64,000 nucleotides of DNA from Anderseniella sp. (GTDB lineage Bacteria; Pseudomonadota; Alphaproteobacteria; Rhizobiales; Aestuariivirgaceae): the NCBI GenBank assembly GCA_028289645.1, contig JANQOK010000008.1:310001-374000 (forward strand), given 5' to 3'. Below the pieces are notes generated by a model. That model did not search any database. It worked only from the letters and a program-made list of their open reading frames with translations, and was not told where the DNA came from. This document shows, piece by piece, positions 4,094 through 5,989 of the stretch. The translations under genes were made by a program, and so were the position numbers. Every line of letters starts with the position of its first letter. The first letter of the stretch is position 1.

Positions 4094-4132
4094 GAGAGAT
4101 AGGTCTGTTTCGCTCACGCAAGCAGTCATTTT

Positions 4133-4309
4133 TGGTGGTCGAACAGCTTATCCGCCTTCGGCGGGCCGTTCTTCATACTGATCGAACAGCTTTCTTTGCT
4201 GCGCTCAGGCCGTTCTTCATACTGGTCGAACAGCTTTCTTCGCTTCGCTCTGGCCGTTCTTCATACTGGTCGAACAGCTTTCTTCGCTGCGCTCAGGCCG
4301 TTCTCCGAT
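4133..4309. repeat. 44-bp tandem repeats, about 4 copies (first divergent)
   Basis: Unit actggtcgaacagctttcttcgctgcgctcaggccgttcttcat at 4177-4220, 4221-4264 and 4265-4309, with a variant copy ending at 4176. Confidence 0.9.
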
Positions 4310-4332
4310 ATTGAACAGACCTATTCATAAGT

Positions 4333-4417
4333 GTCACTCCAGCGAAGGCTGGAATCCATCCTTCTGCGAGTACCCGACTTTCAGGTAGTATTGGATCCCA
4401 GCCTTCGCTGGGATGAC
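4333..4417. repeat. Inverted pair of 26-nt 'TGGATCCCAGCCTTCGCTGGGATGAC'-type repeats
   Basis: 4333-4358 (gtcactccagcgaaggctggaatcca) against 4392-4417 (tggatcccagccttcgctgggatgac); 23/26 positions complementary, and each arm contains its own hairpin. Confidence 0.85.
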
Positions 4418-4430
4418 AGTTGTGATGAAT

Positions 4431-4525
4431 CCCTCCGAGGCACGCGAGTGCCGAGGCAAGCGCGACAGCGCGCCGCACGAAGTGCGCCCCAGCGGAGCGC
4501 AGCCGAAGGCTGCTTGCGTGAGCGG
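4431..4525 (+). repeat. Structured REP-like module, copy A
   Basis: ccctccga-GGCACgcgaGTGCC-gaggcaa-GCGCgacaGCGC-gccgcacgaagtgcgccccagcggagc-GCAGCCgaaGGCTGC-ttgcgtgagcgg; shares conserved linkers with copy B (5254-5351). Confidence 0.85.
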
Positions 4526-4589
4526 AAAAAACAAACCCCAATTCAAGCACGGAGAACAGCCCGCCGAAGGCGGATAAGCTGTTCGACCA

Positions 4590-4622
4590 AACAAAACACC
4601 GCCGGAAGTATCCGGCGGTGTC
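4590..4622 (-). terminator. Rho-independent terminator for the 4650-4937 gene
   Basis: On the minus strand: gacaccgccggatacttccggcggtgttttgttt, a strong GC stem followed by a T-rich tail. Confidence 0.8.
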
Positions 4623-4649
4623 TTCATTTCAACCTGAGGCTGGCGTCAA

Positions 4650-4937
4650 TCAGAAGCCGCGGCGGTACATGCAGCGCTCCCAGCGCCAGGTGTGCCAGCC
4701 GAAGCGGCGGGCGCAGCGCCGTGCTGCACGGCGGTAGTGGCGGCCGCCACGATAACCGTGGCCATAATCGCCGTAATAACCACCATGGGCGTGGGCAGAT
4801 GCGATACCCAGGGCCGCGGCGCCGAGGCCGAAGCCGAGGAAGATCTTTTCCTTCTTGGACAGGGCCTGTGCAGGTGAAGCCGATGCGGCAGCAATGGTCA
4901 GTGCGGCAATAGCGGCAATGGCGGTTTTCTTGAACAT
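4650..4937 (-). CDS. Small secreted/anchored Gly/Tyr/Arg/His-rich protein (95 aa)
   Basis: Signal peptide MFKKTAIAAIAALTIAAASASPAQA, then a glycine-alanine stretch and an HGGYYGDYGHGYRGGRHYRRAARR tail; followed by a terminator. Confidence 0.75.
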   Translation of the reverse strand: MFKKTAIAAIAALTIAAASASPAQALSKKEKIFLGFGLGAAALGIASAHAHGGYYGDYGHGYRGGRHYRRAARRCARRFGWHTWRWERCMYRRGF

Positions 4938-5147
4938 CTCTCGTCTCCTAAAGTCTGGTTCTTCAGTTCTGTTTTGTATCGCGCCCCGGTGCCGGAGCGG
5001 CCGGTCTTCAAATCAACTGTCCCCAATCTAGTAGGACAGCCCTGAACCAAACCTGAGCCAGGCGTTCATATGAGGTTCATGTGGGCAGAGAGGTCTTGGA
5101 AGAGTTATTCAGAGAGGTTTGGTTGTGAGGCACGGAGTGTTTTATTC

Positions 5148-5220
5148 CGCTCACGCAAGCAGCCTGGCGGCTGCGCTCCGCTGGGGCGGGCCTGACCGGC
5201 CCGAGGCCCGTCGGGCCTAG
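5148..5220 (-). repeat. Structured REP-like module, copy C (reverse orientation, divergent 5' half)
   Basis: The reverse complement reads ...GCCCCAGCGGAGC-GCAGCCgccaGGCTGC-TTGCGTGAGCGG, the same 3' half as copies A and B. Confidence 0.8.
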
Positions 5221-5253
5221 TTCCAGAGTTCAGCACAACTGACTTATAGTATT

Positions 5254-5351
5254 CCCTCCGAAGCACAGAACGTGCTGAGGCAAGGCCGACCGGCCGCCGC
5301 ACGAAGTGCGCCCCAGCGGAGCGGTTGGCGCAAGCCAACTCGCGTGAGCGG
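5254..5351 (+). repeat. Structured REP-like module, copy B
   Basis: ccctccga-AGCACagaacGTGCT-gaggcaa-GGCCgaccGGCC-gccgcacgaagtgcgccccagcggagc-gGTTGGCgcaaGCCAACt-cgcgtgagcgg. Confidence 0.85.
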
Positions 5352-5362
5352 TATGAAGCCTC

Positions 5363-5989
5363 CTAGACCAGCAAGGCGCGCTGGTTTACGTCCTTTGTCC
5401 ATATATAGGCACACAGCAGCGGTTGCTGGCCGACATTGGTGGCGTGGGGCACGTAGGGTTCGTGCCAGATGGTCTCGCCCGGTTCGCGCGGTGAGAATTC
5501 CTCGTCACGCACCCGCCAGTCGCTGGCACCCGATAGGATCCAGTATAATTCCGGCGCCGGATGAGCGTGGTTGGGATAGCTCAATCCCGGCCCGAGCAGG
5601 AACAGGCCGAGCAGAAGATCGTCGCCGGCATAAGCGCCGTTCGGTCCAATGATCTCGGCATAGGCGTAATTGTCCATGTAATGGGGCTGGCCCATGGCCT
5701 CATTCGAGTAGTTCGGATTCTGCGCCCAGTGCAGGTCTTCTTCGGCCGCAGCAAGTGCTGCCGCCACATCCGGCGCCACCAGCAGCGTCGATGCAACCAC
5801 GTCGGGCAAGAAACGACACGCGGGCAAGCGGCGGGGCGACGGCGCCGTCAGTGCGGCCGCCGAGATGTCCTGGCCGGCGAGGCGAGACAAGGCCTCCTCC
5901 ACCCCATCCTCGCCGGCATTGTTGGCCTTCAGAGTCGAACTGATTGCGCGGATCAGCCATTGGGCCGTGTCGTGAACATGCGATGTCAT
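5363..5989 (-). CDS. dddQ: Cupin dimethylsulfoniopropionate lyase, DddQ/DddL-like
   Basis: GLFLLGPGLSYPNHAHPAPELYWILSG...ETIWHEPYVPHATN: H-x3-E-x-Y followed by a distal His, as in the DddQ metal site; 208 aa fits the family size. Confidence 0.75.
   Translation of the reverse strand: MTSHVHDTAQWLIRAISSTLKANNAGEDGVEEALSRLAGQDISAAALTAPSPRRLPACRFLPDVVASTLLVAPDVAAALAAAEEDLHWAQNPNYSNEAMGQPHYMDNYAYAEIIGPNGAYAGDDLLLGLFLLGPGLSYPNHAHPAPELYWILSGASDWRVRDEEFSPREPGETIWHEPYVPHATNVGQQPLLCAYIWTKDVNQRALLV

What the first reader, a model, noticed from the sequence alone, without database searches (positions are those of the whole stretch)
4431..5351. REP-like modules with compensatory base changes in three hairpins: a structured element
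Seen: copy A (4431-4525) and copy B (5254-5351) share exact linkers (CCCTCCGA; GAGGCAA; a 27-nt GCCGCACGAAGTGCGCCCCAGCGGAGC; GCGTGAGCGG). The hairpins between linkers differ in a pairing-preserving way: GGCAC/GTGCC vs AGCAC/GTGCT; GCGC/GCGC vs GGCC/GGCC; GCAGCC/GGCTGC vs GTTGGC/GCCAAC. A third copy (C, 5148-5220, opposite strand) shares the 3' half with loop GCCA instead of GAA. Established: REP/BIME elements are palindromic repeats often mobilised by REP-associated Y1 transposases. Inference: structure rather than sequence is conserved, suggesting DNA-hairpin recognition (RAYT-like) or an RNA role. It may be missed elsewhere because it yields spurious ORFs such as 4331..4912.
Basis: partly seen in the sequence, partly recalled or inferred. 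Interest (0 to 1): 0.75.

Follow-up and report, generated by a model that had tools for sequence, protein, structure and literature searches.

The report
Structured mobile-type repeats beside gene ends
The two repeats are members of a roughly 100-base family of multi-hairpin DNA repeats, scattered tens of times through this marine bacterium's genome and found patchily across Alphaproteobacteria, which keep their folded shape while their letters change and usually sit tail-first just behind genes or tRNAs; what moves them is unknown.

Summary
Copies A and B differ in a pairing-preserving way, and they are not alone: the genome (Anderseniella-like, Alphaproteobacteria) holds about 34 full copies, about 15 C-type copies and several 5'-truncated ones, and all five genus relatives carry the element (44-68 copies in four, 5 in one). 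Covariation is strong (61 double-change cells against 20±3 shuffled within the genome; 158 against 51±6 across genera). A covariance model also finds it in 21 of 386 other alphaproteobacterial genomes; Rfam has no match. The element is polar: four hairpins, then GTGAGCG, then about 7 A-rich bases. Its tail lies within 60 nt of a gene's 3' end 73 times against 8 times for a 5' end, including about eight independent tRNA 3' ends. Empty orthologous sites and in-frame insertions in uvrB show gain and loss. Best reading: a non-autonomous, hairpin-recognised mobile repeat that works like REP/BIME or Rickettsia palindromic elements, mobiliser unknown. An RNA role remains open; G·U bias is weak and single-copy folding energies are unexceptional.

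The parts
4431..4524 (+). copy A, full A-type element: H1, H2 (GACN loop), H3 (GAA loop), CCCNNGCGGAGC linker, H4, GCGTGAGCG
   Evidence: CM R1 109.6 bits at C8:314431-314524; alignment A1
4525..4531 (+). A-rich 3' end of copy A (GAAAAAA); consensus RAATAAA across copies
   Evidence: position-specific composition after the tail
4111..4125 (-). 5'-truncated copy: only the tail CTGCTTGCGTGAGCG, forming the left end of composite 1
   Evidence: pattern match C8:314111-314125; inverted repeat 4103-4125 / 4510-4532; truncated class listed
4164..4304 (.). different repeat module inside composite 1 (three ~44-nt units, GTCGAACAGCTT...GGCCGTTCT)
   Evidence: direct repeat family D1
4325..4425 (.). head-to-head pair of CGTC-type REPs (TGTC..AGCGAAGGCTGGRATCCA) inside composite 1
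   Evidence: inverted repeat I2; CGTC REP description PMC3733652
5148..5245 (-). copy C, C-type element (different 5' half, same H4 and tail), head-to-head with copy B
   Evidence: CM R1 51.9 bits; 12 further C-type copies
5254..5350 (+). copy B, full A-type element with the GTTGGC/GCCAAC form of H4; tail 12 nt from the 3' end of the DMSP-lyase-like gene (minus strand, 5363-5989)
   Evidence: CM R1 103 bits; context; Pfam PF16867
4650..4937 (-). small gene (95 aa, no Pfam match) between the two composites; multi-copy in the genus and often flanked by the elements

Best explanation
A, B and C belong to a polar, multi-hairpin interspersed repeat of about 100 nt that behaves as a non-autonomous mobile element. 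SHOWN: tens of copies; strong covariation in all four stems with conserved linkers, H2 loop and tail; a fixed 3' end (GTGAGCG plus an A-rich heptamer) shared by A-type, C-type and truncated copies; head-to-head and tandem arrays; presence/absence at orthologous sites and an in-frame insertion in uvrB; tail next to gene and tRNA 3' ends. INFERRED: a trans-acting factor recognises the hairpins and tail in single-stranded DNA or RNA and inserts or recombines the element next to T-rich sequence at gene 3' ends, where insertions are tolerated; stems then drift by compensated changes because unfoldable copies no longer spread. The factor is not a recognisable resident RAYT and remains unknown.
For: Own genome: 36 blastn matches, 57 CM matches. 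Covariation: within genome 96.8% of cells paired, 61 double-change cells vs 19.8±3.0 shuffled, slid structures at most 39% paired; across genera 158 vs 50.9±5.7, slid at most 20, 19 of 22 pairs doubly changed. Genus: 68, 50, 47, 44 and 5 copies. Class: 21 of 386 other genomes. Tail within 60 nt of a 3' end 73, 5' end 8, binomial p 1.3e-9 against intergenic null points. tRNA 3' ends next to the tail. A-rich 3' terminus at positions +3 to +9, background after that. Empty site: 12-nt spacer in G003 where G000 has a composite; G002 has a 127-nt spacer at the window locus. uvrB: full element in G000, G001, G015, G027; deleted form in G003, G004; absent in G002, G006, G019; between the G000 and G001 uvrB copies H1 differs by compensated changes.
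Against: No mobiliser identified; no clean target-site duplication could be read at 70-88% flank identity; no ongoing transposition shown. Orthologous-site copies (86.1% identical) are only slightly closer than random between-genome pairs (83.7%), which fits turnover but also saturation or gene conversion. Folding z-scores of single copies are modest (-0.7 to -1.6). The A3 and A4 alignments were fitted to the model. Gene calls come from my own codon-based caller.
Confidence: 0.6

Rival explanations
1. A cis-acting RNA module at transcript 3' ends (mRNA/tRNA 3' processing, exonuclease block or non-intrinsic termination), maintained by selection on structure and only secondarily dispersed.
For: Strict position just after stop codons and tRNA 3' ends; covariation; more G-T than A-C stem mismatches, 42:18 in the genus, 71:40 overall.
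Against: Read out of the adjacent gene, the transcribed strand is the complement of the strand with the G-T excess; no U-run after a hairpin in either direction at A, B or C; no excess of terminator-like hairpins abutting the tail; copies absent at orthologous sites; found in frame inside uvrB; no Rfam family.
Confidence: 0.15
2. A RAYT (TnpA-REP) mobilised REP: single-stranded hairpins cut and pasted by a Y1 HUH transposase.
For: Hairpins, head-to-head pairs, T-rich sequence bordering the tail end and 3' gene ends resemble REPs/BIMEs.
Against: No PF01797 in G000-G005 (controls ring); Y1 genes of G043 and G046 have no element nearby; no GTAG/CGTC foot; about 95 nt with four stems.
Confidence: 0.08
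3. An RNA-mediated, SINE-like retroposon: structured RNA with A-rich 3' end inserted by target-primed reverse transcription at T-rich sites.
For: 3' end nearly always intact while 5' ends differ or are truncated (head motif at 33 places, nearly all with tails; tails also on C-type and truncated copies); A-rich 3' terminus; serial tail fragments next to a tRNA in L206 and beside full copies.
Against: No PF00078 reverse transcriptase in element-rich G000 and G004; head-only tandem copies exist in L190; no target-site duplication shown.
Confidence: 0.08
4. Mutational maintenance: hairpin-templated (quasipalindrome) correction, slippage and gene conversion keep the palindromes perfect and homogeneous without recognition by any factor.
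For: Such correction yields paired changes (general knowledge); tandem arrays of ~98-102 nt; weak orthology signal.
Against: Does not explain conserved unpaired linkers, the fixed H2 loop, tail polarity, tRNA adjacency or class-wide dispersal.
Confidence: 0.09

Closest known systems
REP elements of the GTAG and CGTC superfamilies and BIMEs (PMC3733652, PMC2817692)
   Same: Dispersed palindromic extragenic repeats, head-to-head dimers, heterogeneous stems; CGTC REPs are also mainly alphaproteobacterial, have no dedicated transposase and occur inside composite 1
   Different: REPs are 20-40 bp with one hairpin and a GTAG or CGTC foot; here about 95-105 nt, four stems, conserved linkers, A-rich 3' terminus, no such tag and no RAYT
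Rickettsia palindromic elements (RPE)
   Same: Alphaproteobacterial palindromic elements that can sit in frame in protein genes (general knowledge); the uvrB copies behave that way
   Different: Here mostly extragenic and tail-polar; sequence relationship to RPEs not tested
MITEs
   Same: Composites have outward inverted ends (CGCTCACGCNNGCNG) and no gene for their own movement
   Different: Single elements without terminal inverted repeats exist in many genomes; no target-site duplication or parent IS found
Br-REP1/Br-REP2 of Bradyrhizobium (PMC5082802)
   Same: Stem-loop repeats in 3'UTRs of an alphaproteobacterium, Br-REP1 between convergent genes with three stem-loops
   Different: Published consensus sequences do not share this element's core by eye

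Membership tests
REP (GTAG/CGTC) | 20-40 bp single stem-loop with an unpaired GTAG or CGTC tag at one end | tested here: not met
   ~95 nt, four stems, ends CCTCCGA... and GTGAGCG
REP mobilised by RAYT | Y1 TnpA-REP gene in the genome, flanked by the repeats | tested here: not met
BIME | repeats in alternating orientation combined with other modules in mosaics between genes | tested here: met
   head-to-head A/C pairs with CGTC-REPs and a 44-nt module between
Rickettsia palindromic element | in-frame insertion in protein-coding genes | tested here: met
   uvrB in G000, G001, G015, G027 with empty sites in G002, G006, G019; one further in-frame case L198
Rickettsia palindromic element | sequence homology with RPE families | not tested
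   no RPE sequences searched
MITE | terminal inverted repeats with target-site duplication | tested here: inconclusive
   outward inverted ends in composites; duplication unreadable at 70-88% flank identity
known Rfam RNA family | covariance-model match at gathering score | tested here: not met
intrinsic terminator | hairpin followed at once by a T-run | tested here: not met
   no terminator-like site at A, B or C in either direction; no enrichment abutting tails
retroposon (SINE-like) | reverse transcriptase available in the genome | tested here: not met
   none in G000 or G004 by PF00078; one each in G001, G003, G005

The most novel reading that the evidence does not exclude
A bacterial SINE-like retroposon: a structured ~95-nt RNA with an A-rich 3' end, copied by reverse transcription at T-rich sites behind genes and tRNAs using a reverse transcriptase supplied in trans.
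Probability: 0.07. Interest if true: 0.92.

Novelty: new variant of a known kind. Interest (0 to 1): 0.58.

Why it matters
It shows a class-wide, structure-conserved repeat family absent from Rfam and not found in the searched literature, with a polarity towards gene and tRNA 3' ends that the papers read here do not describe for ordinary REPs. Like CGTC REPs it seems to lack a dedicated transposase, so it makes the question of how such repeats spread testable: the element ends, empty sites and target context are now defined, and the covariance models allow genome-wide annotation and avoid spurious ORF calls.

Tried and rejected
RAYT/IS200 link: no Y1 genes in the genus, none near elements elsewhere. 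Reverse transcriptase: none in G000/G004. Known RNA families: none; weak Rfam hits (mir-205, isrJ) are far below gathering scores. Terminator targeting: 9 vs 7.7 expected, 24 vs 16, 10 vs 9.8. Plasmid and phage carriage: no match with one query each. Folding energy: not exceptional. Strand test by G-T versus A-C mismatches: bias real but small, and the aligner may favour it. Orthology of single copies: barely above random. Literature searches for an alphaproteobacterial multi-hairpin repeat near tRNAs or in frame in genes gave nothing matching. The class search scored only ten first-look candidates per genome, so copy counts there are lower bounds.

Full report
OBSERVATION. Copies A (4431-4525), B (5254-5351) and C (minus strand, 5148-5220) are in the sequence as described, with the named linkers and stems. 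The shared 24-mer occurs twice in the window with 0.00 expected by chance. The proposed + ORF 4331-4912 is spurious; a 95-aa minus-strand gene without a Pfam match lies at 4650-4937.

COPY NUMBER AND HOST. The window lies in G000, contig C8 (4.80 Mb, 98.7% complete). Copy B finds 36 places. A covariance model R1 built from 29 own copies finds 57 places at E<=1: 34 at 73-114 bits (full A-type, including copies A and B), about 15 at 36-52 bits (mostly C-type) and weaker ones. A C-type query finds the C-type set. The outward end CGCTCACGCNNGCNG occurs 26+22 times against 0+1 for the reversed control pattern. Contig lengths tie genus members G003, G004 and G005 to MAGs CALHUA, JAHEFB and JABDRA; CALHUA and JABDRA are labelled Anderseniella (Hyphomicrobiales, Parvibaculaceae). 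The genus relatives hold 68, 50, 47, 44 and 5 copies.

STRUCTURE. On 29 own copies the proposed stems pair in 96.8% of cells; 61 cells carry a change on both sides against 19.8±3.0 in shuffles, and sliding the partners by 1-3 columns drops pairing to 22-39%. RNAalifold on its own finds the same stems and adds GGC/GYC outside H2 and a small helix in the linker. Across genera (alignment A3, fitted to R1) 19 of 22 pairs show double changes, with 158 such cells against 50.9±5.7, and at most 20 when slid. H2 appears as GGCC, GCGC, GGGC, GCCC, GCAC and GCGT with its complement, while its GACY loop stays. At one orthologous site, uvrB, H1 is CCGGAC-AAA-GTCCGG in G000 and CCAGGC-GAA-GCCTGG in G001, so compensated change also occurs in place. 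Single copies do not fold exceptionally well (z -0.7 to -1.6), so the case rests on covariation.

DISTRIBUTION. Model R2 (built from A3) finds the element in 21 of 386 other alphaproteobacterial genomes at E<=1e-4, in at least 14 genera, although only ten candidates per genome were scored. The hits show the shared core CAAG-stem-CGACYG-stem, a variable third hairpin, GCCC-NN-CGGAG, a fourth hairpin and GTGAG. The remaining 365 genomes, many large, give none, which serves as a negative control. No Rfam family matches.

POLARITY AND SITES. Position-wise composition shows GTGAGCG followed by about seven A-rich positions (RAATAAA in the genus, generally A-rich in other genera), then background. 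Using my codon-based gene caller and ARAGORN, the tail lies within 60 nt of a gene 3' end 16, 34 and 23 times (own, genus, class) and of a 5' end 2, 4 and 2 times; the head side has 8 and 4 in all. Against random intergenic points of the same loci the combined p is 1.3e-9. At class level ten loci, about eight independent sites, have the tail facing a tRNA 3' end, mostly 6-9 nt away across a T-rich spacer. At copy B the tail is 12 nt from the 3' end of a DMSP-lyase-like gene.

GAIN AND LOSS. A composite separates two co-oriented genes in G000 where G003 has a 12-nt spacer. At the window locus G004 has three tandem minus-strand copies and neither the small gene nor composite C/B, and G002 has a 127-nt spacer without elements. 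uvrB carries the whole element in frame in G000, G001, G015 and G027, a deletion-reduced form in G003 and G004 (ends at a CCGGC repeat), and none in G002, G006 and G019, so presence varies within three genera. A DinG-type helicase in L198 has another in-frame copy (identity of that protein judged from its sequence, not scanned; the same holds for uvrB, recognised by its motifs). Orthologous-site copies are 86.1% identical against 83.7% for random between-genome pairs: fast turnover, conversion or saturation.

MODULES AND 3' ANCHORING. The head motif occurs at 33 places in G000, almost all with a tail; tails also occur on C-type copies and on copies truncated at varying points inside H4 and joined to another repeat. 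Composites mix these with CGTC-type REPs, known to lack a dedicated transposase (PMC3733652), and with a 44-nt repeat. Tandem arrays with ~98-102-nt period occur in G001 and G004.

MECHANISM. The data fit a non-autonomous mobile repeat recognised through hairpins and a fixed tail, kept near gene 3' ends by target preference, by tolerance, or both. The recognising factor is inferred. RAYT is not supported. Reverse transcription is a live but weak alternative because G000 and G004 lack a PF00078 domain. A 3'-end RNA role cannot be excluded; terminator tests were negative and the G·T over A·C excess (42:18 in the genus) is weak evidence for single-strand constraint.

MEMBERSHIP AND NOVELTY. It works like REP/BIME and like RPEs but fails the REP definition (length, tag, RAYT) and was not tested for RPE homology. 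No paper in the searched library describes it. I file it as a new variant of the known kind 'palindromic interspersed repeat'.

Noticed in passing
window 4650-4937 (-): Small 95-aa secreted-looking gene, multi-copy in the genus (second own copy near C10:20.2k) and repeatedly flanked by the elements; the stretch from copy A through the gene to C/B recurs as one unit in G005:C392:5101-5987.
   Followed up: partly
window 4325-4425: Head-to-head pair of CGTC-type REPs inside composite 1.
   Followed up: partly
window 4164-4304: Three direct ~44-nt repeat units (GTCGAACAGCTT...GGCCGTTCT), a further repeat family that joins truncated tails elsewhere in the genome.
   Followed up: no
G000:C5:467263-467358 (L226 11264-11359, L252): The element lies in frame near the N-terminus of uvrB in this genome; reduced or absent in relatives.
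   Followed up: yes
L198 1501-1594: In-frame element copy inside a helicase-like open frame of 836 codons.
   Followed up: partly
L190 6769-6922: In NORP116 (labelled Rhodospirillaceae) two tandem copies hold only H1-H3 and end in TTCTTA, without H4 and tail.
   Followed up: no
L206, next to tRNA-Thr: Two extra 16-nt tail fragments (GCCGTGAGGGAATAAT) stand in series between the full element and the tRNA 3' end.
   Followed up: no
L159 1046-1170 (G002): Where G000 has a composite, G002 has a CGTC-like REP pair between the same convergent genes.
   Followed up: no
window 5363-5989 (-): Gene with a DMSP lyase domain (PF16867).
   Followed up: no
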